From the IMG/VR virus record IMGVR_UViG_3300006805_000106, positions 1-30,535 of that record: a stretch of DNA of 30,535 nucleotides. One strand, 5' to 3'. A program made the translations under genes and the position numbers. Of this stretch, positions 7,927-30,535 are shown piece by piece (the first letter of the stretch is position 1; each line of letters opens with the position of its first letter). Origin of the DNA: a virus. The notes beneath the pieces are model-generated. The model searched no databases. It was not told the origin of the DNA and worked only from the letters and a program-made list of their open reading frames with translations.

Positions 7927-7939
7927 CCCTGGCGTCGCG

Positions 7940-11237: not shown

Positions 11238-12323
11238 GTGGCAACAGTCCCCACGCCAACCGTTGCGAAATGGGTCAGCAAGTACCCCGGCATCGTCGGT
11301 GCGCCGAAGGTCGATCCGCTGCCGCAAAGCGCAACCGGCATCGTCGCGGGCATGGACCCGGACGCGTTCAACACCACCGCCCAAGGCTACACCGCGACCA
11401 CCGCGACCGGCAAGGGCTACGACCCGAACACCGCGACCGGCACGCACTGGAAGGTTGATCCGAACCAGACGGTACAAGGCCAGGTTGACCAGATCACGGG
11501 CAAGGATGGGGTGTTGATGCAGCGCGCCGCGACACGCGCCAAGCAAGAGGCGAACGCCAGGGGCCTGATGAATACCAGCATGGCCATCGGCGCGGGGCAA
11601 ACTGCCGTGATCGACGCGGCCATGCCGATTGCCCAGCAGGATGCGAGCACCTACGGCAGTGCGGCCCGGTACAACGCCGACACCGACAACGCCATGAGCA
11701 CGTTCAACGCGGGCGTGAAGAACGACGCCGCCCGGTACGGGGCGGATACGTGGAACGCGATGGAGACGTTCAACGCGGGCTCAAAGAACACCGCCGCGCA
11801 GTGGTCTGCCGGGGCAAAGAACGACGCCGCCGAAGCCTCGGCAGGCCGGGCGCTGTCGGCCAGCACGCAGAACCTGCAAGCGGCAGTACAGCAGTCGCAG
11901 CAGCGCTACGACGGCGCGCTCAAGACCGCGATGCAGAACGCCGACGCGGCAACCCGCGTGCAACTGCAACAGATGGGCGACGACACCCGCGGCCTGTTGA
12001 CCCAGATGGAATCGCAGTACCGGCAGGGCTTGCAGACCAGCCAGTCAATGGCGAACACGTACCAAGGCTTGATCGACAACATCAGCCGCGTGATGCTCGC
12101 GCCTGACTTGGACGGCCCGGCGAAGCAGTCCGCGATCAACACTTTGACGCAGACCTACAACGCCGCACTGAAACAGCAGCAGATCATCTCGGGGCTGGAC
12201 CTCGGGAGCCTGCTGTCGTTCGGCGGCGCCGCGCCAACACCAGCGCCAACACCAGCGCCCGCCCCCGCTCCTGCCCCCGGCCCTGCTCCGTGGCCCGGCG
12301 GCGACTACAGGGAAACGCCATGA
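11238..12323 (+). CDS. Ejection-type virion protein with 22-residue repeats (361 aa)
   Basis: The GTG start follows AAAAAGGGCG. The region HWKVDPNQTVQGQVDQITGK, then LMNTSMAIGAGQTAVIDAA and PIAQQDASTYG, is a pattern I recall from internal virion proteins of podoviruses, though no exact function is known to me. Residues 145-188 hold two 22-residue repeats beginning Y-N/G-A-D-T, with a degenerate third copy. A Gln/Ala-rich helical region follows. The C-terminus is a proline-alanine tail (PTPAPTPAPAPAPAPGPAP) encoded partly by a tandem 12-base repeat. Position at the head of the ejection block supports a role in DNA delivery. The stop overlaps the next ATG. Confidence 0.8.
   Translation: MATVPTPTVAKWVSKYPGIVGAPKVDPLPQSATGIVAGMDPDAFNTTAQGYTATTATGKGYDPNTATGTHWKVDPNQTVQGQVDQITGKDGVLMQRAATRAKQEANARGLMNTSMAIGAGQTAVIDAAMPIAQQDASTYGSAARYNADTDNAMSTFNAGVKNDAARYGADTWNAMETFNAGSKNTAAQWSAGAKNDAAEASAGRALSASTQNLQAAVQQSQQRYDGALKTAMQNADAATRVQLQQMGDDTRGLLTQMESQYRQGLQTSQSMANTYQGLIDNISRVMLAPDLDGPAKQSAINTLTQTYNAALKQQQIISGLDLGSLLSFGGAAPTPAPTPAPAPAPAPGPAPWPGGDYRETP
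11670..11801 (+). repeat. Tandem 66-base coding repeat (2 full copies)
   Basis: Two copies of 66 bases (22 codons) lie head to tail, sharing the exact 15-mer ACGTTCAACGCGGGC at 11700 and 11766. A decayed third copy follows (WSAGAKNDAAE). Spacing by whole codons keeps the protein frame, so the repeat probably extended a helical or fibrous segment. Confidence 0.75.
12231..12254 (+). repeat. Tandem 12-base repeat coding a Pro-Ala tail
   Basis: GCGCCAACACCA occurs twice in tandem and encodes the A-P-T-P unit. Further degenerate copies (GCGCCCGCCCCC) extend it. It is the kind of short repeat that can slip and change copy number. Confidence 0.7.
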
Positions 12324-12685: not shown

Positions 12686-13458
12686 TGCCTATGGCAATCC
12701 CGCTGGCGATGGCGGCCGGCAGCATCTTCGCGGGCGTGAGCGCGGGCGGCCTGATCGGCGGAGCAATGATCGCAGGCGGCGCCATGTCCGCCATCGGCGC
12801 CGTCACCAAGAATCCCAAGCTCACGAAGATCGGCGGGCTGGTGAGCCTTGCCGGTGGCGTGGCTGGCCTTGCATCTGGCGCGTGGGCTTCAGCAGCATCG
12901 GGCCTGGCCGAACAAGCGGCCTTGACTGGCATGGAAGCGGGCGGTGAGCTTGGCGGCATCGGTGGAGGCATGGCGGCGGCCGAACCTGCCGCCACCGGTA
13001 TCGCTGCCCAAGCCGCTCCGGTGGCCGCTGCGCCGCAGGCCCCGACCGGTATCGCCGCGCAGAACCTCGCCGCGCCGACGGCAAGCATTCAGCCGCCGAT
13101 CGCGCAATCCGCCGATGTGGTGGACATCGGTTCTGCCGCTCTACAGCAGCCGGCGGGGCCGAACATGGCGCAAGAAGCATTCCGGTCAAGCGAGTTGAGC
13201 GCGGCTCTGAAGGGCGGCGGCGATGTGTCGTCGTGGAAGTCAGGCGCGGCCGACGTGACGAACTGGATGAAAAACAACAAGGAACTGGTCAACACCGGGG
13301 CTGGGATCGTCAGCGGCGCGATGAAGCAAGCCAGCGATGAAGACCTGTTGCGCGAGCGGTGGAAGGCCGAGGATGCCGCCATCGCGCGACGCCGCGCCGA
13401 GATGAGCAAGTCTGTTGTCGGGCTCAAAGGCCCGGTCTATCAACCGCCGAAGGGCTGA
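12685..13458 (+). CDS. Hydrophobic ejection-type protein (257 aa)
   Basis: The ATG at 12685 overlaps the previous stop (TGATG) and has AAGGGGAA six to ten bases ahead; an in-frame start at 12655 would lie inside the upstream gene and is not favoured. Residues 1-85 are strongly hydrophobic and Gly/Ala-rich (for example AMAAGSIFAGVSAGGLIGGA), with several possible membrane-spanning helices. A long Ala/Pro/Gln linker follows, then a charged helix near the end (LLRERWKAEDAAIARRRAEM). Proteins of this build in podovirus ejection blocks form part of the channel across the host envelope. That role is inferred. Confidence 0.8.
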   Translation: MPMAIPLAMAAGSIFAGVSAGGLIGGAMIAGGAMSAIGAVTKNPKLTKIGGLVSLAGGVAGLASGAWASAASGLAEQAALTGMEAGGELGGIGGGMAAAEPAATGIAAQAAPVAAAPQAPTGIAAQNLAAPTASIQPPIAQSADVVDIGSAALQQPAGPNMAQEAFRSSELSAALKGGGDVSSWKSGAADVTNWMKNNKELVNTGAGIVSGAMKQASDEDLLRERWKAEDAAIARRRAEMSKSVVGLKGPVYQPPKG

Positions 13459-13463
13459 CCATC

Positions 13464-13988
13464 ATGGCCGGAATCGTTGGCGAACCGCCGAAACAAGTCT
13501 CCAGCTCAGCCCCCGCGCCGGGGGGCGACGATCCCATGTCGCACGACGCGATCATGGCCGCAATGCACCTGAGCGACGAACAGCGCGACCCGTTGATGCG
13601 GATCGTCGCCGCGGGGAAAAAGATTTTGTACTCCAAGCAGACTCATCCGATGATGGTCGAGGCCATGCAGGGCGAAGGCCCGACCGAGAAGAAGTTGGCC
13701 GACGGCATCATTGGGCTGATCGGCCTGCTGTGGGGAGAGTCCAAGGGCTCGCTTCCCCCGCAACTCATCATCCCGGCCGCGATGGTGCTGATGGCCGACG
13801 CCGCCGACTTCATGCGCCAAGCTGGCGAGGAGGTCACGCCGGAGCAATTCGGCATGGCAAATGAACTGCTGATCGACGGGTTGCTGAAGCAGGGCGGGGT
13901 TGACCCGGAGAAGCTGGCAGGCGTTGCCGGTGGTCAGGCGGGTGGCCCGTCGATGAGCGCAGCGCCGGCCGAAGGAGCGATGGCATGA
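13464..13988 (+). CDS. Conserved-looking virion protein of unknown function (174 aa)
   Basis: The ATG at 13464 follows GAAGGGCTGACC; the in-frame start at 13359 lies inside the preceding gene and is rejected. The core (RIVAAGKKILYSKQTHPMMV, then KLADGIIGLIGLLWGESKG and LIIPAAMVLMADAADFM) has two hydrophobic helices and resembles small proteins accompanying ejection proteins. Ends are disordered and Gly/Pro/Ala-rich. No catalytic motif is visible. It may be membrane-active or assist the larger ejection proteins, judging by place. The stop overlaps the next ATG (ATGA). Confidence 0.75.
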   Translation: MAGIVGEPPKQVSSSAPAPGGDDPMSHDAIMAAMHLSDEQRDPLMRIVAAGKKILYSKQTHPMMVEAMQGEGPTEKKLADGIIGLIGLLWGESKGSLPPQLIIPAAMVLMADAADFMRQAGEEVTPEQFGMANELLIDGLLKQGGVDPEKLAGVAGGQAGGPSMSAAPAEGAMA

Positions 13989-15185: not shown

Positions 15186-17498
15186 ATGCAGCCCTGGGAA
15201 CGGGATTGGTCGCAAAGCGGCAGCGGCGCCAGCCGCGCCCCGTGGGAGCGCGAATGGGCTCCGGCGCCCGAGCCGGCCAAGCGCGGCATCGCGGCCGTCG
15301 CCAATGACACCGTGATTGAGGCTGCCAACGCCGCCGCTGGTGCCGTGAGTGCGGGCGCGAACTTCTTCAGCCCCGGAAACCGCGTCTCGCAGTACATCGA
15401 CGAGAACATCATCAAGGCCGGGGAGGAAGCGCAGAGCGACGTTGCCAAGGCGTCGCGTCGGCAGTTTCAGGAAGAAGTCGCCAACGCCGACGGCTTCATT
15501 GGCGAGCTTGGCGCCGTTGGCCGCAAGATCGCCCGCGATCCGCTTCTGACTGCGGCGCAGGCGGCTGGGTCGTTCGCGGTTCCGGGTTTCGCCGTCAAGG
15601 GGGCTGGAATGCTCGCTCGCGGCGCGGGGGCGACCGGGGCGGGCATCGCGCGGGCGGGGCTGGCTGGTGGCGCAGCCGCCGGTGCGGCGTTGGCTGGCGG
15701 CGACGCTGCCGGCCAAGCCTACCAACTGGCTATCGAGGCCGGGGCGACCGAGGAACAAGCAACAGCCGCCGCCCGGCAGGCGTCCGCCGTCCCGGCCGTT
15801 GTCGGCGGTGCCGGTGGCCTCGTTGGCGCCGAGCGACTGCTTGCCGGCGCGGGCGGGATGAAGGGCGGGATCGTCGCCAGAGCGCTCAAGACGGCGGGCG
15901 TCGAGGGCCTGCAAGAAGGCTTCGAGGAAGGCGTCACGCAGTACGAAGGCCAGCGCGCCGCGATGCCGTATGACGCCAGCATCGACCCTTGGAAGGGGGT
16001 TGGCGCAGCGGCGGGCATGGGTGCCGCAATGGGCGGCGGTATCGGCGCGGCCACGGGCGCGCTGACGAAGCCGCGCGAGCCCGACCCTGTGACAAAGGGA
16101 ATCAACGAGATTGCCGCCGCTCCGACCGTGGACGACGCGATCAACGCGTTCGCCGACAGTGTGAGCGGCAAACCGGCCGCGCCGACTTTTGGCGACCGCA
16201 TCGCTTCGGTCAAGGCCGACGCCTCGCGCGAGACGATGGCCGCCCTGCGCGAAAAGTACGGACCGGATTCGGCCACGGAATTCCTCAACAGCCTTGCCCA
16301 GGCGCAGAACCCGCGCGTTCCGACAGAGGTTCGTGAGAAGCACCTGCAAGCCGTCGAGACGATGCTGTTCGAGCTGCGCGCCACGCGCGAGCCGGAGGCA
16401 CCCGCCCCGTTGGCGCTGACCGGGCCTGACGCGCAGCCCGCAATTGGCTACGATGGTGCGCCGCCGCAATTGGGCATGGGCAGCACGCCGACCGGGACGA
16501 TGCGCGTCGGGCCGGATGGGCAAGCCTTCCCCGAGACCGCCGCCGACGTGACCGCTGGCCGACAAGATCGCATGGCCCGAGACGGATTGACCGCGCAGGC
16601 CCCGCAAGGCGGCGAGCCCGGAGCCGGCGTGATGGTCGGCGACGGCACGCTCACGCCGGGCGTGGCACGCAAGGAGCCGGTCCCGCAGACCGCGATGGCC
16701 CAAGCGCTGCTGCCGTTGCGGGATCGACTTGAGGCCATGCGCAAGAAGGAGCCAGATGCGCCAACACCGCGACCGACAGCCGGGCCAGTGGCTACCGAAG
16801 TGGCTACGCCGACCCGTGCAGCAGGGGCATCTGAGCCAGCAGGAGGCGGCGCAGTTCTACCGCGCGTGGAGCAAGGCCAAGCCGGGCGAGTCGCTGGACC
16901 TGCCGCCGCGCCTGTGGCCGGCAGCGGAGAAACTGTACTTGTTGGAGCAGGAGCCTCCGACGCAGAGCAGGCACTGACCGGCGCGGGCATCACGCGCCAA
17001 AAGGCCGCCGAGATTCGAGTCCTTGCGCAGCAAGTGATTGATGATCCGGGCGCCGTGAGCTGGCAGAAGGCTCGGGCGAGAGGCGAAATCGCTCGCGCAG
17101 ACAAGCTCGACGAATTGGCCCGGACGCTTGATCTGACCGCCAAGCCCTACGCCGACATGACGCCGGCCGAACAATCGTCCTTCGACGCAGCCAACGGCAT
17201 CACGCCGGGCCGGCGCGCGGAAGTGGCCAAGCAACTCGACGCACAGAATGCCGCGGCCCCGGCATCCCAACAGCCCGCCGCGTCTCCCGGTGCGGCTGTT
17301 GGCCCGGGGGCCGCGGCACCCGCCACCCCCCGCGTCCCGAAGTCGTTCCGCAAGCGGCACAAGGTCAAGACGCGGGTGTTCGACGAGGAAACGGGCGCGC
17401 TTGAAGAACAGGAATCCGACGCCGACACCGCCCTCTTGGCGATCCAAGCCGACATCTCCGAACTGCGCGCGTTTCGGCTGTGCCTGACCGGGGGTTGA
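15186..17498 (+). CDS. Large ejection-type virion protein (770 aa)
   Basis: The start ATG is one base after the previous stop. The N-terminus has two W-rich repeats (PWERDW and PWEREW), a feature I recall at the start of internal virion proteins. Residues about 115-190 are a hydrophobic Gly/Ala stretch (GAGMLARGAGATGAGIARAG) and another occurs near residues 275-300. The middle is helical (ALREKYGPDSATEFLNSLAQ). From about residue 520 to 600 the protein becomes Ala/Pro/Gly low-complexity, with codons unlike the rest; here a second ORF is nested in the +1 frame (16756-16977). The C-terminus (KSFRKRHKVKTRVFDEETG, then DISELRAFRLCLTGG) is a compact conserved-looking domain. A role in DNA delivery is inferred. 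Confidence 0.82.
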   Translation: MQPWERDWSQSGSGASRAPWEREWAPAPEPAKRGIAAVANDTVIEAANAAAGAVSAGANFFSPGNRVSQYIDENIIKAGEEAQSDVAKASRRQFQEEVANADGFIGELGAVGRKIARDPLLTAAQAAGSFAVPGFAVKGAGMLARGAGATGAGIARAGLAGGAAAGAALAGGDAAGQAYQLAIEAGATEEQATAAARQASAVPAVVGGAGGLVGAERLLAGAGGMKGGIVARALKTAGVEGLQEGFEEGVTQYEGQRAAMPYDASIDPWKGVGAAAGMGAAMGGGIGAATGALTKPREPDPVTKGINEIAAAPTVDDAINAFADSVSGKPAAPTFGDRIASVKADASRETMAALREKYGPDSATEFLNSLAQAQNPRVPTEVREKHLQAVETMLFELRATREPEAPAPLALTGPDAQPAIGYDGAPPQLGMGSTPTGTMRVGPDGQAFPETAADVTAGRQDRMARDGLTAQAPQGGEPGAGVMVGDGTLTPGVARKEPVPQTAMAQALLPLRDRLEAMRKKEPDAPTPRPTAGPVATEVATPTRAAGASEPAGGGAVLPRVEQGQAGRVAGPAAAPVAGSGETVLVGAGASDAEQALTGAGITRQKAAEIRVLAQQVIDDPGAVSWQKARARGEIARADKLDELARTLDLTAKPYADMTPAEQSSFDAANGITPGRRAEVAKQLDAQNAAAPASQQPAASPGAAVGPGAAAPATPRVPKSFRKRHKVKTRVFDEETGALEEQESDADTALLAIQADISELRAFRLCLTGG
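16756..16977 (+). CDS. Candidate overprinted gene in +1 frame (73 aa)
   Basis: The ORF lies wholly inside the 770-aa ejection protein gene. It starts with ATG four bases after a perfect AAGGAG (16746-16751). It encodes a protein-like sequence with tryptophans (RQPGQWLPKWLRRPVQQGHL, then AAQFYRAWSKAKPGESLDL and LWPAAEKLYLLEQE). Hand counts give G/C at the third position in about 64 of 73 codons, as in normal genes here. The enclosing frame over the same bases has only about 35 of 74 and reads as low-complexity Ala/Pro/Gly. Ordinary shadow frames in this genome are Arg/Ser/Thr-rich and look quite different. The function is unknown. Confidence 0.6.
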   Translation: MRQHRDRQPGQWLPKWLRRPVQQGHLSQQEAAQFYRAWSKAKPGESLDLPPRLWPAAEKLYLLEQEPPTQSRH

Positions 17499-17501
17499 CA
17501 C

Positions 17502-17774
17502 ATGCCTATCACCGTCCCCCGCAAGGTCGCTCCGATAGCCGAAGCGCAGAAGCCGCTTCCGCCGGCCGCTGCCGCGCTGACCGTGGCCGATGTTGTGGCA
17601 ATGATGGACGCCAGAGACGCAATGTGGCGCGAGCAAATCTCAGCGCTTGAGAGTGCGTTTGCGTCCGCCATGTCTGCGCTTCCAAAGCCGGCCCCTCGCA
17701 CAGGGAGCGACATCAAGTTCAAGTACGACGAGCGCGGGATTGTGACCGGCGCTGAAATCATCCCGAAGGAGTGA
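17502..17774 (+). CDS. Small protein of unknown function (90 aa)
   Basis: The ATG is three bases after the previous stop, with GGGG about 6 bases before it. It has a Pro/Ala-rich N-terminus, a central helix (VADVVAMMDARDAMWREQIS) that probably forms a coiled coil, and a short beta hairpin at the end (IKFKYDERGIVTGAEIIPKE). I do not recognise the family. It separates the ejection block from the appendage block and could belong to either. Confidence 0.72.
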   Translation: MPITVPRKVAPIAEAQKPLPPAAAALTVADVVAMMDARDAMWREQISALESAFASAMSALPKPAPRTGSDIKFKYDERGIVTGAEIIPKE

Positions 17775-17777
17775 ACC

Positions 17778-18218
17778 ATGCCGAAAAGCACCGACGCCTG
17801 CAACCGCGTCTTGAACCTGATGTATTCCGCGACGCCGTGGCCGACCGTGGCCGACAACGCCGCCGCGACGCCGTTGGCAAACACGTATGTGGCGCTGCAC
17901 GATGCAACGCTGACGCCGGCCACCAACTCGCAAGCCGAGAACGAGTCGGCGTACACCAACTACGCACGGGTGGCCCGCGCAAGATCGACGGGCTACACCG
18001 CTGCGGCGGGTGGGTCGATCAACAACGCGGCCCTCATGCAGTTCCCGCAGTCGGGCGCTACCGGCGGCACCCTGCATTCCGTGAGCACAGGCACAACGGT
18101 CAGCGGCGCGACCCCGGTGTGGCACTACGGCCCGCTGAATTCGCCCATCACCATCGGCGCAGCGGCCAGCATCACCCCGCAGTTCTTGGCCGGCGCGCTG
18201 GTCATCACCGAGACGTGA
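17778..18218 (+). CDS. Beta-rich virion/appendage protein (146 aa)
   Basis: The ATG follows GAAGGAGTGAACC, a strong ribosome site within the previous gene's end. The sequence after residue 35 (NTYVALHDATLTPAT, ESAYTNYARVARARSTGYT, NNAALMQFPQSG, then FLAGALVITET at the end) is a pattern I recall from small phage tail-associated proteins common in prophages. The function is not known to me. It contains no membrane helix. The stop shares bases with the next ATG (TGATG). Confidence 0.8.
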   Translation: MPKSTDACNRVLNLMYSATPWPTVADNAAATPLANTYVALHDATLTPATNSQAENESAYTNYARVARARSTGYTAAAGGSINNAALMQFPQSGATGGTLHSVSTGTTVSGATPVWHYGPLNSPITIGAAASITPQFLAGALVITET

Positions 18219-18445
18219 TGTTCGAGCGCTACCCCTACCTCTACAACTGCGCCGAGTGCGGCGCAAAGGTCAAGGTCAAGCCCGAAGGAGTCAAGCGAAC
18301 ATGCAGCCACACGACAGCAGCAATCAACGCCCCGAGGAAAAGCCTGCTGACGGGCGACGGGACGATGAACGGGGTTCCGTACCGGATGCGCCTGGAGTGG
18401 CACCTCCGCAAGTTCCTGACGCGGGTAACGGGGCGGTGTGTCTGA
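18218..18445 (+). CDS. Small zinc-ribbon protein (75 aa)
   Basis: The ATG overlaps the previous stop (TGATG). Near the N-terminus C11 and C14 (NCAECGAK) pair with C29 and H31 (RTCSH), a C-x2-C...C-x-H set expected to bind one zinc ion. The rest is basic (KSLLTGDG, then YRMRLEWHLRKFLTRVTGR), consistent with nucleic-acid or protein binding. G/C-ending codons dominate, as expected for a real gene here. A small zinc ribbon in a run of appendage genes is unusual. The actual partner cannot be read from the sequence. Confidence 0.75.
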   Translation: MFERYPYLYNCAECGAKVKVKPEGVKRTCSHTTAAINAPRKSLLTGDGTMNGVPYRMRLEWHLRKFLTRVTGRCV

Positions 18446-21204: not shown

Positions 21205-21488
21205 TTACCGCACGCCGTGCCGCACTGCTGGGCCTGACGGTCCCGCTGTCGGCCATCATGACCGCGGTGCTCGGGCTGTGGCCCGAGGAAAATGATGAAG
21301 TCGTTGTCGTCCCGCCGTTCAACGGCGACCCCAAGGGCGGGGGAGATGGCCGGCGGCGGGGCGAGCGCAAAGCCGCGCCCCGAAGCGACAAAGCCGACGA
21401 GTGGATTGCAGAACAGCGCCGAATCGCGCGGGCGAACAGGCTGGCGATTGCGATAATCGTCGCCATTGCCGAGCGGGAGTTTGCATGA
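21201..21488 (+). CDS. Small membrane-anchored protein coupled to the giant gene (95 aa)
   Basis: The GTG start lies in the previous stop (GTGA), and its own stop overlaps the giant gene's ATG (ATGA). Residues about 8-27 (ALLGLTVPLSAIMTAVLGLW) form a likely membrane helix, followed by an acidic and Pro segment (ENDEVVVVPPFNGD), a Gly/Arg-rich linker (KGGGDGRRRGERK) and a C-terminal helix (RRIARANRLAIAIIVAIAER). I do not recognise the family. Strict coupling on both sides suggests it is made in step with the giant protein and perhaps works with it; this is inferred. Confidence 0.72.
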   Translation: MITARRAALLGLTVPLSAIMTAVLGLWPEENDEVVVVPPFNGDPKGGGDGRRRGERKAAPRSDKADEWIAEQRRIARANRLAIAIIVAIAEREFA

Positions 21489-24400
21489 GCAGAGCGGGAA
21501 CGTGTGTGCTTCGACACTTCGGGAAGAAGTCGCCCATTGCCGCGTATCGGGCGGACATGGAGGCCGACGTTTCCGAGCTTGTCTCCGACGGCATGGAGCA
21601 GGATGCCGCATGGCTGCAAGTTGTTGACGCCAAGTTGGCCGAGCTGACGGGCGAGCAAACCAGAATCTCGCAAGAAGTCGCCGACGCCTACGCCAAGACC
21701 CCGGCGGGCAAGCCACTTGCCGCGGCCCCGACGACGCAACCGGCGCCAGATGGCGGAACTGCTGCGCCGACGGTGGTCGCGGCACCAGAGAAGCCCCGCA
21801 TCTTCAAGAGCCGCAAGAACGCCGAAGCCGAGAAGAAGCGCCTGGGCAACGAGAACCGCATCCAGAAGGTCAAGGGCGGCTACGTCCTGCGCAAGAAGAC
21901 CGACAAGGAACTGGCCGCAGAGGTCAAGGGCAGCGCTCGCCTGAAGCGCGGCAAGGGCGACACCTTGCTTGGCCGGATCGCGCAACTCGGCGGCTTGAAC
22001 ATGGGAGCCAAGGCCGACACCATCGGCCAGGGGAACAAGAACGCTGGCGGGAAGATGGTGTTTCGGGTTGATGGCCGGCGCATCGACGAACTGGCCGGGC
22101 TGCTGCACGACGAAGGGTTCATCCCGCAAGACGAGTTCGACGATGACGGCGGCGTGCGCTGGCTTGAGGCGGCGATAGAGGCGGAGGTCGCCGGGCGGCG
22201 CACGCACTACAGCCAGAACGACGAAGATTGGATGGAGGCCGCAGTCCGGGCCGCGCAGGGCGAGTCGCCCGACTACGAGGCCAACGGCGTCACCGACGAG
22301 GCCCTGGCCGAAGCTGCGTACTTCGAGGCCACGCGCCGCGAACAGGAGGCGGTTGACGCTATCGCTGATGCGGTTTTCGACGCACAATCCGATGACGACG
22401 CAATCGAGGCATTCTGGTCCTCGCTCGCCGAAGTTGAAGCCGAGGAACAACGCTATGGGCAAGCCGACTCTGACGCCGAAGATGCAACAAGCGATCGCCA
22501 AACTCCGGGCGCTGCCGAAAGCCGAGCGCAGCAAGGTGCTGGCGATGGCGCGGGCGGTGCTGAAGGACAAGCCCGCTACGAAGTAGGGCGATCGCTCACG
22601 CGCGAGCAGCGCAAGAAGGTTCTTGGCACTCTGGTCGATGTCTACAAGGCCAAGGGCGCCCCGCGCGAGCAGAAGGGAATCGGCCGCGGCGGCAACGAGC
22701 GATACGGCTACGTCCACTCGCCTGAACTGTTCGAGAAGTCGGACATCACCGGCGCGATGGTGCGCTACCACGTCACCCTGCCCGATGGCCGCATCGCGCA
22801 CCCGAGCGAACTGTTCCCCGACTTCACCCAAGCTCAGATCGACACCGCGCTGATCGAGCAGGCTGCGGCCGAAAAGCAGGACGCGGCCAGCCAAAAGGAA
22901 GTCGAGGAACGCGCAGATCGCCGCGGCAAGGACACCGACGCAGCGGCGCGCGCCGACTTTTTCGCCCGAAACGCTGAGGTCAACGCGCGGGCCGCCGATC
23001 TTATGGTGCTCACGAAGGGCGGTAAGTTCTTCGCCACCACGGCCGACGATGCCGCGCACATCACGCGACTCAAGCGCGCCGGGTGGGCTGAAGGACTGGC
23101 CGAAACCGGGCTGACGCTCGAAGCGCAGACCCCCGCCGATCTACGCGCCAAAGCCGAGCGCGAAGCCGCCGCACTCGAAACCGAAGCCAAGCAGAAAGCC
23201 GCCGAACAAAAGCGCCTCGCCAAAGAGGCCGAAGCCCGCGAAGTGAACGACCGCGCCCGGCAGGATGCCAGCGCAGACAACTTCGTGCTCGGGCAGGACG
23301 CGAACGATGCGCTGTCGGGGCAGTCGGATATCTTCAGTCAGCCGGCGCCGGTAGCCGAAGAGCCCGCGCCTGCGGAACTCGATGCCATTGACGAGCGCAT
23401 CGCCGCCGCTGAAGCCGCCGGGGTCACGCTGTCGGTTGAGGACAAGGACAACATCCGCGCGGCGTTGGAAAAGGCCGACGGACTGCGCGCCAAGGCCGGC
23501 GGCATCTCGCGCGCCAACGACCCGATGCGCGATTCATTCCCGCTGGGTGGCGGGTTCGGCCGTGGTTCCGAGCGCAGCCGCGACCGCAAGATCGACGCAT
23601 CGGTGAAGCGCGCCGTCGGGGCCGTGGCCGCGTTCAACAAGGCCGACCAAGCCGAGAAGTACGCCGAGGCGCTGCTGGGTGGCAAGGGCACCGCGGCCGA
23701 CCTGATGCTCCGGGCGGCGCGCACGCTGGAAACGCGGCGCCTGCTGGTGACGAAGCTGCTGGAGTGGAAGAAGGGCGACAAGATCGGCCCGGTCACGATC
23801 GAGCGCATCAACAAGGACCGCGACGGCTACCCGGCGACGTACACGATCTCCGGCGACGGCATCATCAAGGGCGTGATGGACAAGGTGGATGTCGCCCGCG
23901 AGATGTTCGGCGGCGACAAGGACGCCTTCAGGAACATGGTCGACGACGTGCTTGGCGGCAAGCCGCCCACGCCCACGCCGCAGCAGCGCCTTGAGGCAAC
24001 GCGGGCCGAACCGCCGAAGTCCGCGGTGGACGCCTTCAAGGAAATCATGAGCCGGCTGTACGACGGCACGCTGCCGCTCGACGAGTTCAAGGCCGCATTC
24101 ACGCGCCTGGTGGGCGACGAGGCCGGCACGCGCGCCGCACTCAACGCGATGACGAAGGACGAGTTGATCCGCATGTTCGGCATCCGCCGCGACGACGGGA
24201 AGAAGGCCGAGCTTGTCGATACCGCCTACGGCGCGATGCTCAACGGCTTTGCGCTGGGCAAGTCCTACGGCAGCAACAGCTACGTCCTCAGCAGCACCGC
24301 GTCAGCCGTCGCGTACAAGGCGCGTCAAGCCGCGGCGCTGCGCGAACTGGTGGCCAACCAGACCGCCGAGGATCTGGCGACGTTCGCCGCCGAGGTCAAG

Positions 24401-27400
24401 GCCGAGCGCGAGGAACGCGCGTCGAAGCGCGAGGCCATGAAGGCGTCGATCGAGAACCCGAAGACGCTCGACGACTTCAAGCGCTTCATGTCCTACCACC
24501 AGCAGGACGGCAAGACGTACAAGGAAGCGCGCTTCATGCTCACGCCCGAGCAGCGCGCGACGTTCGATGAACTGGCGGGCGAGTCCACGCGCAGCAGCCG
24601 CAAGCAGACCACCGACGCCGAACGAGCGACGGTTCGCGTCGCCGGGCAGACTGTTGACGGCGACATCATCGCCACCAAGCACACCCGCGACGGGCACGAC
24701 CTCTACGTGGTGCGCTTGGCCGAACGCGTCAGCGCCGAGGATTACCGCACGCTGCTGGCCGGCGCCAAGCGCATCGGCGGCAACTATTCCAGTTACCGCG
24801 GCAATGGTGCCGTGCCGGGCTTTCAGTTCCGTACCCGCGAGCAGGCCGAGGCATTCCGCACGCTGGCCGGCGGCGACAACGCCCCGGCGCAGGAAGCCGC
24901 GCAGGAACGCCGCGACGCCTTCGCCGACGACCGCAGCCAGACCGCATCGCAACGCCTGGCGGAGATGGCAGACAGGCTGGAGGAACGCGCCGACGAAAGC
25001 CTGTCGCGCGAGCGCAAGACCAACACCCAGCGCCGGGCCGGGCAAGCCGCGAGCGCCGAAGTGAGCGCCAACGCCGAGAAGGCGATGGGCCGGACGATGC
25101 GCAACCTGGCCAATGCGATCGACGCTGGCCGCGCGAAGTTCCTCGACCGCGTGCGCCAGAAGGTGCAGGTGGAACTGTTGCAGCGCTTGGTGGCCAACGC
25201 CCAAGGCGATTACCTGCGGGCGCGCTACCCGGCCTACATCGACCAGGAAAAGCACAAGGGCGAGCGCCCGACCGGCGAGACGGCCGACTACGCCGACTTC
25301 CCCACGTTCACCGCCTACCGCTCCGACCTGGCGAGCCTGGGCCGGCAACTGCTGGAAGTGGACGGGACGAAGCTGTTCGGCCAGCGGCTGATGAAGGTGG
25401 CCGACGACGTGACCGATGCCTACCTGACGTTCGCCAAGACCGAGCCGCGCGTGAAGGTGTTCAGTGCGGCCGGCGGCGGCGCGGCAGTGATGCCGACGAT
25501 GGACGCAGCGAATGCCGCCATCGTGCGCAGCGGCTACAAGGGCAAGGCCATCGCGTTCCAGATCAAGCGCGGGCAGTACGGCGTCATCATGTCGCCAAGC
25601 GCGGCCATCGAGCAAGGCATCTGGAAGGGCGACGGCGACAAGCGCATCTCGCTCGACCCGGAGTTCGGCGCCGAGCTGGTGGAGAAGATCGGCCGCGCGA
25701 ACCGCCGTGGCGCCCGCGTGTCGGTGCCCTGGCAGTTCGAGACGGCGCACGACCGGCGCAAGGCCCTGGCCCGCATGGGCATCGAGACGCCGGCGGAAAT
25801 GCGCGCCGCGCTGCGCGAGTTCATCGGCTTGCGCGAACAGGCGGCCGAGCCCGACAAGGTGAAGGCGATGGAGCGGGCCATGATCGGCCGCCGCAATGAT
25901 GGGCTGGACTTCTTCCCTACGCCGGGCGGCACCGCTGACGCGATGATCGAGGCCGCGGCGGTCGAGCCCGGCATGCGCGTGCTGGAACCGAGCGCCGGCA
26001 TGGGCCACATTGCCGAGCGCCTACGTGCGGCCGGCGTCGAGCCCGAGGTCGGCGAAGTGTCGAATGCCCGCATCGAACTGCTTGAGGCCAAGGGCTTCAA
26101 CGTGGTGGCGCGCGATTTCCTCGATTTCAACGACGCGAACCAAGATGCCCGCGGGTTCACCTACGGCGACGTGTTCCGCGCGCCGGATGGCACGCTGGGT
26201 ATTCTGCGTGGCAGCAACGGTCTCGGCGGCGACCGCGTGGGCCTGGCCCCGCTCGACGCGAGCGGCCAGCCCGACATGCGCCGCAGCCGATGGGAAACTT
26301 TCGGCGACCTGGAGCCGGTCGAGAAGCGGGGCGTCGGCAGCGGCTACGACCGAATCCTGATGAACCCGCCATTCAGCGACGGCCGCGACATCCAGCACGT
26401 TCGCCACGCCTACAGCCTACTGAAGCCGGGCGGGCGCTTGGTGGCGCTGATGGGCGAGTCAGCTTTCACGAACCAGAACAAGCGCGCGGCCGAGTTTCGT
26501 GAGTGGCTGGAGTCGGTGGGCGGCACTGAGGAAAAACTGGCCGAAGGCACGTTCAACGACTCGAACCTGCCGGTCAACACCGGCGCGAATGCGCGCATGG
26601 TGGTGATCGAGAAGCCGGGAAGCAGGAGCGAACAACTCTCCATTGACGCCGCCCCCGCCAGCGCGCAAGATGCCGCCAATGGACAAGCCCCCGACGACCA
26701 GCGAGCCCTCTTCGACATCTTCGCCCGGCGCATTGCCGCCACCTACGGAGGCGCCCGTGCTGGAATGCTTTACGCTCGCCCTGCGGGAAGCGGAGGCGCG
26801 GCTGTCAGCGGAAGAACTCTTCAGTCGATTGCAAACGTCGCCAAAGCCATCTTCGGGCATGAAGTCGTCTATGTAGGGTTCAAAGGAACCCCGTTCTTCA
26901 ATGGCGCCGTCAGCGACGCCATCCCCAACACGATCTTCCTGAACGCGGATTCGCAGCGCCCGCTGCTGGCCGTGCTCGGGCACGAACTGCTGCACAAGCT
27001 GCGCGCGTCCGATGAAGTGGCCTACCGCACGCTGGCCAGCCGGTTGAACCGCCTGCTGAAAGGCGAGAGCCGCTACCGCGACAAGCTCGAAGCCGCGTAC
27101 AGGGCGGCAGGCCTGACACTGCCGATCAACTGGGCCGAAGAACTGCACGCCGACGTGGTGGGCGATTTCTTCACCGACCCGCAGTTCTGGCGCGACATGG
27201 CCGGCGAACAGCCCCGGCTGTTCAAGCGCGTGGCCGACGCGGTGCTCAAGTTCCTTGACGACGTTGCGCAGAAGATCGGCAACCTGCGGCCGTTCGGGAC
27301 GGAACAGTACCTGAAGGACATCAACGACGCCCGCGCCGCGGTGGTCGAGGCGATGCAGGGCTTTAGCAAGTCGCAGGGCGAGGTGGCTTCGGCGGCCGAC

Positions 27401-30400
27401 GCGATCCAGGCCGAGCACTACAGCATCGCCGACAAAAACGGTGGCATCATCCGTGTTGTACCGATCCAATTGGGCGATGGGCCGAACTGGGTTGTCACAA
27501 GGAACCTACCAAATGGACAGCACCACCTTGGCTACTTCAAGTCCGAATCCGAAGCCAATGAGGCCGCCGAGCGCGAGCGAGTCGAAGCCAAGCGAGCCGC
27601 CGGCCAAGGGTCGCGCTGGTGGGTTCCGAATCCAGCCGAGCCCGTTCAATCAGCGGGTGGAGGCAGGCTCGACAGCCTGGGCCGCGTCAGAGCGCTGAAA
27701 GCGACGCTCGACGCGCAAGCGCAGAGCATCAAGACGCGGGCCGACGGCCTGCAACTGGAGCAGATGGCAGACCGCGCCGGGTTCTGCTACAAACTCGCCG
27801 CCGAAGCGTCGGCCGCAGGGCTCGGCGATATGGTCATCGGCCGGGCGGACAACGACGGCAGCCCGGAGTGGCATGCCGTTGTGATGCGCGACGGCATGAC
27901 TTACGACCCGACGTTCGGCAAGTGGTTCGAGCCGGGCATCTATGAAGCTCTCGGGTTCCGCGCGCACACGACGCTGACGCCGCAGGCTGTGCGCGACTAC
28001 ATCTCCACAAGCGGCGGCTTTGCGCCTGATGCGCGGCGGCTGAAGTTGGATGCCGGCGACATTCAATTCAGCATCGCCGACCAGAACATCCGCACCGCTC
28101 AAGACCTGATCGACGCGAAGCAGCCCCGCCCGGAGCGCGTCCGGTCCTTCATGAAGTCGGCCAACGACGCTATGCGCAAGTTCGTGCTCGGCGCCTACAC
28201 CCGCGACCAGATCGCCGACATCTACGGCAAGGAAATTCCCCCGGTCAAGGAGTACGACGACCTGACCCGCGCGATGGAGAACGAGCGCTCGAAGATGGCG
28301 AGCGATGCCGACGACCTGTACACCAAGTGGGCGAAGATCAACCCCGAAGTGAACGACCGGCTGGCGAAGGTCATGCTCGAATCGACCGTGGCCGGGGTTC
28401 ACCCGGACGGCCCATTCTCGACGGAAGCCGAAGCCGGAAGCTGGCGCGAGACGCAACTGCGGCTGGCCAACAAGAAGCGCTCGCAGGACTACGGCCGGCT
28501 GCGCAACGAGTTCAAGGCCCTGCCGCCAGAGGCGCAGGCCATGTACAAGCAGGTGCGCGACTTCCACGCTGGAGTTCTGGCGAAGCTGCGCAAGGGGCTG
28601 GAGGACCGCATCATGCGTCAGGTGGACGACAGCGCCATCCGCGCCGCCGTGCTCACCAGCATCCGCGAGAAGTTCGACGGCTACCTCGGCGAAGGCCCGT
28701 ACTTCCCCCTGTCCCGCTTTGGCGACTACCTTGTGATCGCCGAGAAGGGCGATGATCGGTTCGTCGCCAGCTACGCCACGTCCGGGGAATCGGCCGCTGC
28801 CGCGCGCCGGCTCAAGGCCGAGGGCTACACCGTCAAGCAGCGCGTCGCCAAGGAGTACAGCCGCGCGATGGATGGCTCTGCCGGGAAGTTCATCGGCGAC
28901 GTGCTGATGGCCGTGGACAAACTCGACTTTGACGAGGCCGCCGTCGGCACGCGCGACGTGAAGGCGCAGTTGATGGACGACATCAACCAACTCGCCATTG
29001 CTGCTTTGCCTGACCTGTCCTATCGCAAGCACTTCATGCACCGCACGGGCACGCCGGGCTTCAGCAACGACGTGATGCGGGGGCTCGCATCAAGCACGTT
29101 CCACGCGGCCAGCCACATCGCCCGGTTGAACCACGGCGACAAGATGACTTCGGCGCTGGAGGGGGCCTACACCGCCATCGACAACGCGCCCGAGGGCGAC
29201 TTCGAGTTGCACACGCAGGTCTTGAACGAGTTGACCAAGCGCCACGAGGCGATGCTGAATCCGAACACGCATCCGATCGCTTCGATGCTGAATCAGGTCG
29301 GCTTTGTGATGTACCTCGGCGCGAGCCCGGCAGCCGGGATCATCAACGCCTTGCAGCCCATGATGGTGACGATGCCGTACCTCGGGGCGCGGTACGGGTT
29401 CGGCAAGTCGAACGCGACGATGACGAAGGCTTATGCCGACATCTTGGGCGGATCGAAGTTCAACCGCGCGAGCGGCTGGCGCGCGGCCGACAGCAAGAAT
29501 CTCTCGGCCAGCGAAGTTGCGATGATGAAGCAACTTGAGGACGAGGGCGCCATCGACCTGACGCAGGCGCACGAGTTGGCACAAGCAACGTCGCGCGACA
29601 CCGGCAACGTCGCCCACACCAAGGCCGCCTTCGCGATGAGCCGGGCGATGAAGATCGTTGCGTGGACGTTCCACATCCCTGAAGTGATGAACCGGCAAGT
29701 GACCGCCCTGTCGGCCTACCGGCTGGAGATGCAGAAGTCGGGCGACGACGCGAAGGCCAAAGAGGCGGCGCGGACGGCGATCGACCGCACGCAGTTCAAT
29801 TACACATCATCAAATCGCGCACGCTACATGCAGGGCAACGTCGCCCGCGTGCTGCTCCAGTTCAAGCAGTACGCGCAGAACATGACGTACCTGCTTGGCC
29901 GGGCGGCGCACGAGGCACTGAAGGGCGAGACGCCGGAGGCCCGCAGCATCGCCCGCAAGCAACTTGTGGCGACGATGGGCGTGACGTGGGCCATGGCCGG
30001 GGCGCTTGGCCTGCCGGGCATTGGCTCCGTCATGGGCCTGATGGGCATGTTCGTCTCGGCGATGGACGATGACGATGAGCCGTGGGATTGGAAGGTCGAG
30101 ATGCGCAACGCGCTGGCCGACACGGTGGGCAAGGACGCGGGAGAAGTCATCTCGCACGGCATTCCTCGGGCGTTGATGCCGTGGGATGTGGCAAGCCGCG
30201 TGGGCATGGGCGATATGTGGTGGCGCTCCAACGATCGAGAGGGCCAGAACCCCCGCGAAGCGTGGGCGGCAGACATGCAGAACCTGCTGGGGCCGAGCGC
30301 GGGGACGATGATGGGCCTCTACACCGCGGCGGACCAGATGGCCCGCGGCAACTGGTCGAAGGCCGTCGAGGCGATGGTGCCGAAGGCGATCCGCGATCCG

Positions 30401-30535
30401 CTCAAGGCGATCCGCGAAGGCGCTCAAGGGGTGTCGAACTACAACGGCGAGCCCTTGATGGACCTGACCGGCATGGAAACGCTTGGCCGGTTCATCGGCT
30501 TCGCCCCCGCGCGCGCTGGCGAGATGTTCGAGGCC
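21485..30535 (+). CDS. Giant PLxRFG polyvalent virion protein (3017+ codons, runs off window)
   Basis: I translated one uninterrupted frame from the ATG (ATGA overlap with the gene before) to the last base, without a stop. Order of parts: a helical N-terminus and Pro/Ala linker (1-100); a domain with DTLLGRIAQLGGLNM and MVFRVDGRRIDELAGLL (about 105-245); an acidic region holding a nested ORF; a region with ERYGYVHSPELFEKSD (about 365-460); a charged coiled coil ending QSDIF (about 613); helical regions; GGNYSSYRGNGAVPGFQF (about 1100); an adenine methyltransferase (about 1470-1715); a zinc metallopeptidase (about 1735-1975); a Cys-His-Asp domain (about 2040-2190); and the PLxRFG tail (2200 onward). 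Large polyvalent proteins of this type, such as P1 DarB in part, are packaged and injected to protect the DNA. The 3' end and any further domains are outside. Confidence 0.9.
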   Translation, partial: MSRAGTCVLRHFGKKSPIAAYRADMEADVSELVSDGMEQDAAWLQVVDAKLAELTGEQTRISQEVADAYAKTPAGKPLAAAPTTQPAPDGGTAAPTVVAAPEKPRIFKSRKNAEAEKKRLGNENRIQKVKGGYVLRKKTDKELAAEVKGSARLKRGKGDTLLGRIAQLGGLNMGAKADTIGQGNKNAGGKMVFRVDGRRIDELAGLLHDEGFIPQDEFDDDGGVRWLEAAIEAEVAGRRTHYSQNDEDWMEAAVRAAQGESPDYEANGVTDEALAEAAYFEATRREQEAVDAIADAVFDAQSDDDAIEAFWSSLAEVEAEEQRYGQADSDAEDATSDRQTPGAAESRAQQGAGDGAGGAEGQARYEVGRSLTREQRKKVLGTLVDVYKAKGAPREQKGIGRGGNERYGYVHSPELFEKSDITGAMVRYHVTLPDGRIAHPSELFPDFTQAQIDTALIEQAAAEKQDAASQKEVEERADRRGKDTDAAARADFFARNAEVNARAADLMVLTKGGKFFATTADDAAHITRLKRAGWAEGLAETGLTLEAQTPADLRAKAEREAAALETEAKQKAAEQKRLAKEAEAREVNDRARQDASADNFVLGQDANDALSGQSDIFSQPAPVAEEPAPAELDAIDERIAAAEAAGVTLSVEDKDNIRAALEKADGLRAKAGGISRANDPMRDSFPLGGGFGRGSERSRDRKIDASVKRAVGAVAAFNKADQAEKYAEALLGGKGTAADLMLRAARTLETRRLLVTKLLEWKKGDKIGPVTIERINKDRDGYPATYTISGDGIIKGVMDKVDVAREMFGGDKDAFRNMVDDVLGGKPPTPTPQQRLEATRAEPPKSAVDAFKEIMSRLYDGTLPLDEFKAAFTRLVGDEAGTRAALNAMTKDELIRMFGIRRDDGKKAELVDTAYGAMLNGFALGKSYGSNSYVLSSTASAVAYKARQAAALRELVANQTAEDLATFAAEVKAEREERASKREAMKASIENPKTLDDFKRFMSYHQQDGKTYKEARFMLTPEQRATFDELAGESTRSSRKQTTDAERATVRVAGQTVDGDIIATKHTRDGHDLYVVRLAERVSAEDYRTLLAGAKRIGGNYSSYRGNGAVPGFQFRTREQAEAFRTLAGGDNAPAQEAAQERRDAFADDRSQTASQRLAEMADRLEERADESLSRERKTNTQRRAGQAASAEVSANAEKAMGRTMRNLANAIDAGRAKFLDRVRQKVQVELLQRLVANAQGDYLRARYPAYIDQEKHKGERPTGETADYADFPTFTAYRSDLASLGRQLLEVDGTKLFGQRLMKVADDVTDAYLTFAKTEPRVKVFSAAGGGAAVMPTMDAANAAIVRSGYKGKAIAFQIKRGQYGVIMSPSAAIEQGIWKGDGDKRISLDPEFGAELVEKIGRANRRGARVSVPWQFETAHDRRKALARMGIETPAEMRAALREFIGLREQAAEPDKVKAMERAMIGRRNDGLDFFPTPGGTADAMIEAAAVEPGMRVLEPSAGMGHIAERLRAAGVEPEVGEVSNARIELLEAKGFNVVARDFLDFNDANQDARGFTYGDVFRAPDGTLGILRGSNGLGGDRVGLAPLDASGQPDMRRSRWETFGDLEPVEKRGVGSGYDRILMNPPFSDGRDIQHVRHAYSLLKPGGRLVALMGESAFTNQNKRAAEFREWLESVGGTEEKLAEGTFNDSNLPVNTGANARMVVIEKPGSRSEQLSIDAAPASAQDAANGQAPDDQRALFDIFARRIAATYGGARAGMLYARPAGSGGAAVSGRTLQSIANVAKAIFGHEVVYVGFKGTPFFNGAVSDAIPNTIFLNADSQRPLLAVLGHELLHKLRASDEVAYRTLASRLNRLLKGESRYRDKLEAAYRAAGLTLPINWAEELHADVVGDFFTDPQFWRDMAGEQPRLFKRVADAVLKFLDDVAQKIGNLRPFGTEQYLKDINDARAAVVEAMQGFSKSQGEVASAADAIQAEHYSIADKNGGIIRVVPIQLGDGPNWVVTRNLPNGQHHLGYFKSESEANEAAERERVEAKRAAGQGSRWWVPNPAEPVQSAGGGRLDSLGRVRALKATLDAQAQSIKTRADGLQLEQMADRAGFCYKLAAEASAAGLGDMVIGRADNDGSPEWHAVVMRDGMTYDPTFGKWFEPGIYEALGFRAHTTLTPQAVRDYISTSGGFAPDARRLKLDAGDIQFSIADQNIRTAQDLIDAKQPRPERVRSFMKSANDAMRKFVLGAYTRDQIADIYGKEIPPVKEYDDLTRAMENERSKMASDADDLYTKWAKINPEVNDRLAKVMLESTVAGVHPDGPFSTEAEAGSWRETQLRLANKKRSQDYGRLRNEFKALPPEAQAMYKQVRDFHAGVLAKLRKGLEDRIMRQVDDSAIRAAVLTSIREKFDGYLGEGPYFPLSRFGDYLVIAEKGDDRFVASYATSGESAAAARRLKAEGYTVKQRVAKEYSRAMDGSAGKFIGDVLMAVDKLDFDEAAVGTRDVKAQLMDDINQLAIAALPDLSYRKHFMHRTGTPGFSNDVMRGLASSTFHAASHIARLNHGDKMTSALEGAYTAIDNAPEGDFELHTQVLNELTKRHEAMLNPNTHPIASMLNQVGFVMYLGASPAAGIINALQPMMVTMPYLGARYGFGKSNATMTKAYADILGGSKFNRASGWRAADSKNLSASEVAMMKQLEDEGAIDLTQAHELAQATSRDTGNVAHTKAAFAMSRAMKIVAWTFHIPEVMNRQVTALSAYRLEMQKSGDDAKAKEAARTAIDRTQFNYTSSNRARYMQGNVARVLLQFKQYAQNMTYLLGRAAHEALKGETPEARSIARKQLVATMGVTWAMAGALGLPGIGSVMGLMGMFVSAMDDDDEPWDWKVEMRNALADTVGKDAGEVISHGIPRALMPWDVASRVGMGDMWWRSNDREGQNPREAWAADMQNLLGPSAGTMMGLYTAADQMARGNWSKAVEAMVPKAIRDPLKAIREGAQGVSNYNGEPLMDLTGMETLGRFIGFAPARAGEMFEA
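22455..22586 (+). CDS. Candidate overprinted small gene in +1 frame (43 aa)
   Basis: Inside the giant gene, GAGGA (22442-22446) stands eight bases before an ATG that opens a +1 frame. The product is a basic amphipathic helix (TPKMQQAIAKLRALPKAERS, then LAMARAVLKDKPATK). About 37 of its 43 codons end in G or C. The enclosing frame has only about 20 of 44 and reads as a disordered Gln/Gly/Ala stretch. This inversion suggests selection on the nested frame. The function is unknown. Confidence 0.5.
   Translation: MGKPTLTPKMQQAIAKLRALPKAERSKVLAMARAVLKDKPATK
25890..26640 (+). other. DarB-like N6-adenine methyltransferase module of the giant protein
   Basis: FFPTPGGTADAMIEAA leads into the SAM-binding motif VLEPSAGMGH (residues 1499-1508), then RDFLDFND (about 1543-1550) and the catalytic ILMNPPFSDG with N1627-P-P-F1630. 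KPGGRLVALMGE follows. All motifs of a gamma-type DNA adenine methyltransferase are intact. About 65 residues are inserted between FLDFND and NPPF. P1 DarB carries such a domain and protects DNA from type I restriction; the same role is inferred here. Confidence 0.85.
26685..27415 (+). other. Zinc metallopeptidase module of the giant protein
   Basis: GHELLHKL gives the HExxH motif (H1833, E1834, H1837). WAEELHADVVGDFF follows about 46 residues later and supplies a likely third zinc ligand in the E1885/E1886 pair. The module begins near IFARRIAATYGG and ends before YSIAD. It may cleave host proteins after injection or process the giant protein itself; neither can be read from the sequence. Confidence 0.75.
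26757..26876 (+). CDS. Possible overprinted small ORF in +1 frame (39 aa)
   Basis: GGAGG (26747-26751) lies five bases before a GTG that opens a +1 frame within the metallopeptidase module. The product (VLECFTLALREAEARLSAEE and so on) is a plausible helix. G/C-ending codons number about 26 of 39, against about 20 of 40 for the enclosing frame. That frame is itself a sensible protein here, so the case is weaker than for the two other nested ORFs. Confidence 0.33.
   Translation: MLECFTLALREAEARLSAEELFSRLQTSPKPSSGMKSSM
27660..28066 (+). other. Candidate Cys-His-Asp (papain/transglutaminase-like) module
   Basis: Within the giant protein, GFCYKLAAEA (C2101), WHAVVM (H2130) and TYDPTFGKW (D2141) occur in the order and spacing of a small papain-like or transglutaminase-like fold. 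The module lies between the linkers YSIAD (1979-1983) and FSIAD (2195-2199). It could be a protease, deamidase or transglutaminase acting on host targets. The assignment rests on the triad and local patterns only. Confidence 0.5.
28080..30535 (+). other. PLxRFG tail region of the giant protein
   Basis: PLSRFG at 28706-28723 (residues 2408-2413) matches the signature that names this class. After it come HFMHRTGTPGFSNDVMRGLA, a hydrophobic segment (VGFVMYLGASPAAGIINALQ, about 2605-2640), YTSSNRARYMQGNVARVLLQ with FKQYAQNMTYLLGR, and a second hydrophobic stretch (about 2826-2865) ending in DDDDEPWDW. These are hallmarks of the C-terminal part of PLxRFG proteins, which probably contact membrane or other virion proteins. 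Confidence 0.88.

What the first reader, a model, noticed from the sequence alone, without database searches (positions are those of the whole stretch)
16756..16977. Overprinted 73-aa gene inside a large ejection protein
Over these bases the nested +1 frame, not the enclosing one, carries the phage's normal codon signature (about 88% G/C at third positions against about 47%). It is preceded by AAGGAG at 4 bases and encodes a tryptophan-containing, non-repetitive protein. The enclosing frame here is low-complexity Ala/Pro/Gly, which can tolerate being dictated by another frame. Before and after, the enclosing frame is normal, so a sequencing frameshift is unlikely.
Basis: partly seen in the sequence, partly recalled or inferred. 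Interest (0 to 1): 0.8.

Follow-up and report, generated by a model that had tools for sequence, protein, structure and literature searches.

The report
Out-of-frame coding patch in phage gene
A patch of about 200 bases inside a large phage gene carries the phage's coding signature in the wrong reading frame; it could be a small hidden gene, but it fits at least as well a stretch whose reading frame was shifted and later restored, and no relative was found to decide.

Summary
The reading-frame anomaly is real. Over 16816-16953 the +1 frame, not the enclosing 770-aa frame, carries the phage's codon signature: +34.8 bits, where the best of 16,313 comparable gene windows reaches -4.8. The ORF ATG 16756 to TGA 16977 and its AAGGAG at 4 bases are there. 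High G/C at +1 third positions follows automatically from the Ala/Pro/Gly protein (expected 0.867, seen 0.877); only the enclosing frame's low third-position G/C (0.49, expected 0.80) is informative. And the +1 signal does not run from ATG to stop: the first 20 codons (16757-16817) score worse than any gene start in the window, and their best frame is the third one (+2). The frame path 0, +2, +1, 0 is what compensated small indels leave, and normal flanks do not argue against that. I put compensated frameshifting at about 0.42 and a genuine nested gene at about 0.35 in total (73 aa from ATG 16756, or 53 aa from GTG 16816, where the +1 signal starts). Searches of viral, phage, plasmid and prokaryotic collections found no relative covering the patch, so neither reading is proved. 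'Ejection protein' is also only inferred.

The parts
15186..17498 (+). Enclosing ORF, 770 aa. Residues 26-295 match phrog_18222 (function unknown); the remainder is an orphan. Role as ejection protein inferred from position only.
16746..16751 (+). AAGGAG, Shine-Dalgarno-like, 4 bases before ATG 16756
   Evidence: the only such motif among 54 alternative-frame starts tested
16756..16977 (+).
   Evidence: no relative found
16757..16817 (+). Stretch whose best-scoring coding frame is +2 (ANTATDSRASGYRSGYADP), not the enclosing frame and not +1; the +2 frame has no start codon of its own and stops at TGA 16832-16834
   Evidence: +14.5 bits over enclosing, +18.1 over +1
16816..16953 (+). Core with unmistakable +1-frame coding signature (VQQGHLSQQEAAQFYRAWSKAKPGESLDLPPRLWPAAEKLYLLEQE); begins at a GTG codon in that frame
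   Evidence: +34.8 bits, GC by codon position 0.71/0.42/0.93, 1 rare codon of 45
16954..17498 (+). Enclosing frame is again the normal coding frame

Best explanation
The patch is DNA that was selected as protein code in a frame other than the one the large ORF now uses. The most likely history is a set of small, mutually compensating indels inside one large virion or polyvalent-type protein gene. The inferred original reading runs in the enclosing frame to about 16757, in the +2 frame to about 16816, in the +1 frame to about 16953, then in the enclosing frame again: three shifts of the same sign adding up to three bases. A pair of opposite shifts bounding only 16816-16953 is the simpler version. 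Today's ribosome reads straight through in the enclosing frame and makes an Ala/Gly/Pro linker, which is what off-frame G+C-rich code looks like. Shown: the frame-specific codon signatures and their limits. Inferred: the indels, their order, and that the product tolerates the new linker.
For: The +1 signature is limited to 16816-16953 and is bounded on both sides inside the nested ORF. The stretch 16757-16817 is best in the third frame, abuts the +1 core within about 2 bases, and scores like normal code there (-1.749 bits/base; true-frame mean -1.769), while the enclosing (-1.987) and +1 (-2.047) frames are poor. The path 0, +2, +1, 0 is the best Viterbi path for switch penalties from 7 to 12 bits. 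The enclosing segment has the base pattern of an off-frame reading (G/C 0.93/0.71/0.42 by codon position). With the +1 residues held fixed, the enclosing frame stays open in 42% of synonymous resamplings, so an open read-through needs no explanation.
Against: The AAGGAG-ATG at the right place would be a coincidence of roughly 5-15% (my estimate). The +1 codons of the core are intact (1 rare of 45), so the shifts would have to be very recent. Three same-sign indels within 200 bases is a demanding history; if only two occurred, the +2 stretch is chance (four other +2 gains of 13 bits or more exist in about 19 kb of genes). No relative with the unshifted protein was found.
Confidence: 0.42

Rival explanations
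1. One reading: a 73-aa gene nested in the +1 frame, translated from ATG 16756 by internal initiation at AAGGAG, with the large protein's linker dictated by it. By codon usage the small frame would be the older of the two, so the linker, not the small gene, would be the overprinted newcomer.
For: ATG with AAGGAG at 4 bases, unique among 54 alternative-frame starts. Core +1 signature of 34.8 bits. The single-sequence model of the product is helical (pLDDT 71.5, pTM 0.52), while a same-frame control ORF from the same gene gives pLDDT 68.0, pTM 0.15 and one helix.
Against: The first 20 codons score below every real gene start and are beaten by 18 bits in another frame. There is no +1 signal in 16954-16974. 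No relative in any collection searched. One control fold is a weak comparison.
Confidence: 0.2
2. A smaller nested gene of 53 aa starts at GTG 16816 in the +1 frame and ends at TGA 16977.
For: The +1 signature begins at 16815-16817, at that GTG. The phage uses GTG at several gene starts, and only 5 of 19 genes have a strong Shine-Dalgarno motif by the same criterion.
Against: No Shine-Dalgarno motif before GTG 16816. Leaves the +2 signature of 16757-16817 unexplained. No relatives.
Confidence: 0.15
3. Operon fusion or insertion: the patch brings together the tail of one reading frame (+2, ending at TGA 16832) and the start of another gene (+1, from GTG 16816), and one small indel or a roughly 200-base insert now lets the enclosing frame run through them. 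The small gene may or may not still be made.
For: Explains both alternative-frame stretches with one event; the stop/start overlap of about 19 bases is ordinary for phage operons. In this window the frame one base out of phase with gene 17778-18218 is open by chance over a 224-codon ORF.
Against: The downstream part has no good start codon of its own near 16954; the next in that frame are GTG 16914 and GTG 17031. No relative shows separate genes.
Confidence: 0.12
4. Assembly or sequencing error: two or three single-base errors in the patch.
For: A second contig of what appears to be the same virus (L006) differs from the window by one C in a C-run at 7929 and by no substitution over 11,270 bases.
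Against: That contig does not reach the patch. The one difference falls between genes, as a natural variant would. All other plus-strand genes are intact, and the patch holds only one homopolymer of four (GGGG at 16824).
Confidence: 0.08

Closest known systems
Compensatory frameshifting mutations within one gene (PMC8935012 for animals; PMC8127213 for RNA viruses)
   Same: A segment read in a new frame between normal flanks, in a poorly conserved part of the protein.
   Different: The published cases rest on alignments of relatives and on pairs of indels; here there is no relative, and three same-sign shifts are the best-scoring path.
Internal overlapping (overprinted) genes of viruses (review PMC8227390)
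   Same: A +1 internal overlap, the commoner kind; an orphan product; codon usage of the two frames differs.
   Different: Here the small frame has the genome-like codon usage, so it would be the ancestral one and the linker the newcomer. No conservation or expression evidence.
phrog_18222 proteins / large polyvalent-type phage proteins
   Same: The N-terminal 270 residues of the enclosing protein match at 45-46% identity; one relative carries LPD38.
   Different: Relatives are about 2,100 aa and share nothing with residues 280-770, so they do not cover the patch.

Membership tests
Overlapping (overprinted) gene pair | Two open frames over the same bases, the inner one with start and stop | tested here: met
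Overlapping (overprinted) gene pair | Coding signature of the inner frame over the whole inner ORF | tested here: not met
   Present only in 16816-16953; absent in 16757-16817 and 16954-16974. Met for the 53-aa version except its last 7 codons.
Overlapping (overprinted) gene pair | Conservation of the inner frame in relatives | tested here: inconclusive
   No relative covers the patch
Overlapping (overprinted) gene pair | The inner product is made | not testable with these tools
   Needs ribosome profiling or mass spectrometry
Compensated frameshift segment | Abrupt change of best coding frame and return, with open reading in the present frame | tested here: met
Compensated frameshift segment | A relative that reads the segment in the unshifted frame | tested here: inconclusive
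   Searches with the joined reading found none
Phage ejection protein (enclosing ORF) | Homology to an experimentally defined ejection protein | tested here: inconclusive
   Only phrog_18222, function unknown, and no Pfam hit; its position after virion genes is suggestive only

The most novel reading that the evidence does not exclude
A functional orphan small protein (53 or 73 aa) is encoded inside a large virion-type protein gene, and the small gene is the older one: the big protein's Ala/Gly/Pro linker arose by reading an existing gene out of frame.
Probability: 0.33. Interest if true: 0.55.

Novelty: new member of a known kind. Interest (0 to 1): 0.36.

Why it matters
If a nested gene, it would be an internal overlap in a larger dsDNA phage and a case where the linker is the overprinted part. 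If compensated frameshifting, it is a fresh example of how phage linker sequence is made, and a warning that an alternative-frame codon signature is not by itself evidence of an overlapping gene.

Tried and rejected
Homology for the 73-aa product: phages, plasmids, viral contigs, genome contigs, PHROGs, Pfam, NCBIfam and PDB sequences gave nothing; the best PDB-sequence hit (E 0.03, antibody chains) is chance. A degenerate motif scan (W...KPG....LPPR) gave 9 contigs, all chance on inspection. The related phage G009 (capsid protein 54% identical, similar gene order) has a 2,878-aa protein at the corresponding position with no significant similarity to either frame. Fold searches gave no significant hit; the best viral match, A8HNW3 (E 0.65, TM 0.68), could not be identified. 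Programmed frameshifting was considered and set aside: I saw no slippery heptamer near 16757 (reading). RNA element: none in Rfam. The GC3 of the +1 frame was rejected as evidence. Two of my own training genes proved mis-called (17771-18445, truly 17778-18218; and 13359-13988, which I retrained from 13467) and were corrected before the final statistics.

Full report
What is there. The window is a 30.5-kb virus record of a podovirus-like phage with an N4 gp56-type capsid protein. ORF 15186-17498 (770 aa) follows the virion genes. Its residues 26-295 match phrog_18222, and its first 270 residues match about 2,100-aa proteins in four viral contigs at 45-46% identity, one of which has the polyvalent-protein domain LPD38. 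Residues 280-770 have no match. 'Ejection protein' is therefore an inference from position.

The anomaly. Within 16756-16977 the +1 frame is open for 73 codons from an ATG with AAGGAG at 4 bases. GC3 is 0.88 in the +1 frame and 0.49 in the enclosing frame. Resampling synonymous codons for the enclosing protein gave GC3 of 0.798 (sd 0.046) and never 0.486 in 200,000 draws, so the enclosing frame did not choose these codons. The same resampling gave a +1 GC3 of 0.867 and an open +1 frame in 75% of draws, so those two features carry little weight.

Limits of the signal. With a 3-periodic model trained on the window's own genes, 16816-16953 favours +1 over enclosing by 34.8 bits; over 16,313 gene windows of that length the best is -4.8. 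In 16757-16817 the +1 frame is worse than the enclosing frame, and the third frame (+2) scores like normal code: +14.5 bits over enclosing (about 1 of 18,007 windows) and +18.1 over +1 (none of 18,007; maximum 10.6). Among 23 gene starts none scores as low as the first 20 codons after ATG 16756, and none is beaten by another frame. From 16954 the enclosing frame is best again. The best Viterbi path therefore steps 0, +2, +1, 0 for a wide range of penalties; at the strictest penalty tried (15 bits) only the +1 core 16815-16953 remains.

Reading. All models agree that 16816-16953 was shaped as +1 code. A frame that rotates by the same step three times and comes home is what small compensating indels leave. 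A pair of indels bounding only the +1 core is the simpler version, with the +2 stretch then a coincidence of roughly 2% (my estimate from the four or so comparable +2 gains in about 19 kb). A nested gene explains the Shine-Dalgarno motif and the intact +1 codons better. Its start would be ATG 16756, with a poor first 20 codons, or GTG 16816, where the signal begins but without a Shine-Dalgarno motif. The +1 product is predicted as a small helical protein (pLDDT 71.5, pTM 0.52; matched control 68.0 and 0.15). That is equally expected if it was once part of the large protein.

Why it is undecided. No sequence covering the patch was found by tblastn in phages or plasmids, in eight scans of the viral collection and two of the genome collection, or in the related genome G009. 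The one near-identical contig, L006, ends at window position 11270.

Comparison with the known. Internal +1 overlaps are a known kind, and codon usage is a standard way to tell the older frame (PMC8227390); by that test the small frame would be the older one here. Compensatory frameshifts within genes are also a known kind (PMC8935012; PMC8127213). Either way this is a member of a known kind, not a new category.

Weights. Compensated frameshift 0.42; nested gene from ATG 0.20; from GTG 0.15; fused operon or insertion 0.12; assembly error 0.08; the rest unexplained. These are judgements, not computed posteriors.

Noticed in passing
21401-30535, + strand: One ORF of at least 3,045 aa runs off the right end of the window. 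It matches LPD39 (large polyvalent protein), several giant phage protein families, DNA methyltransferase families and a DarB-like antirestriction family. A constant codon phase over 9 kb supports it.
   Followed up: partly
17771-18445 against 17778-18218, + strand: The longer ORF is spurious; the coding signal (113 bits) belongs to 17778-18218 (146 aa) in the +1 frame. It shows how easily an out-of-phase frame stays open in this phage.
   Followed up: yes
7927-7929 and L006: L006 is 100% identical in protein over the shared genes and differs from the window by a single C (CC against CCC) in 11,270 bases, between two genes.
   Followed up: partly
L012 13030 onward (genome G009): A related phage with similar gene order has a 2,878-aa protein with a Pfam inorganic pyrophosphatase domain (PF18823) at the position of the window's 770-aa ORF.
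   Followed up: partly
16787-16811: A short tandem near-repeat (AGTGGCTACCGA / AGTGGCTACGCC, period 12) lies inside the ambiguous stretch 16757-16817 (read).
   Followed up: no
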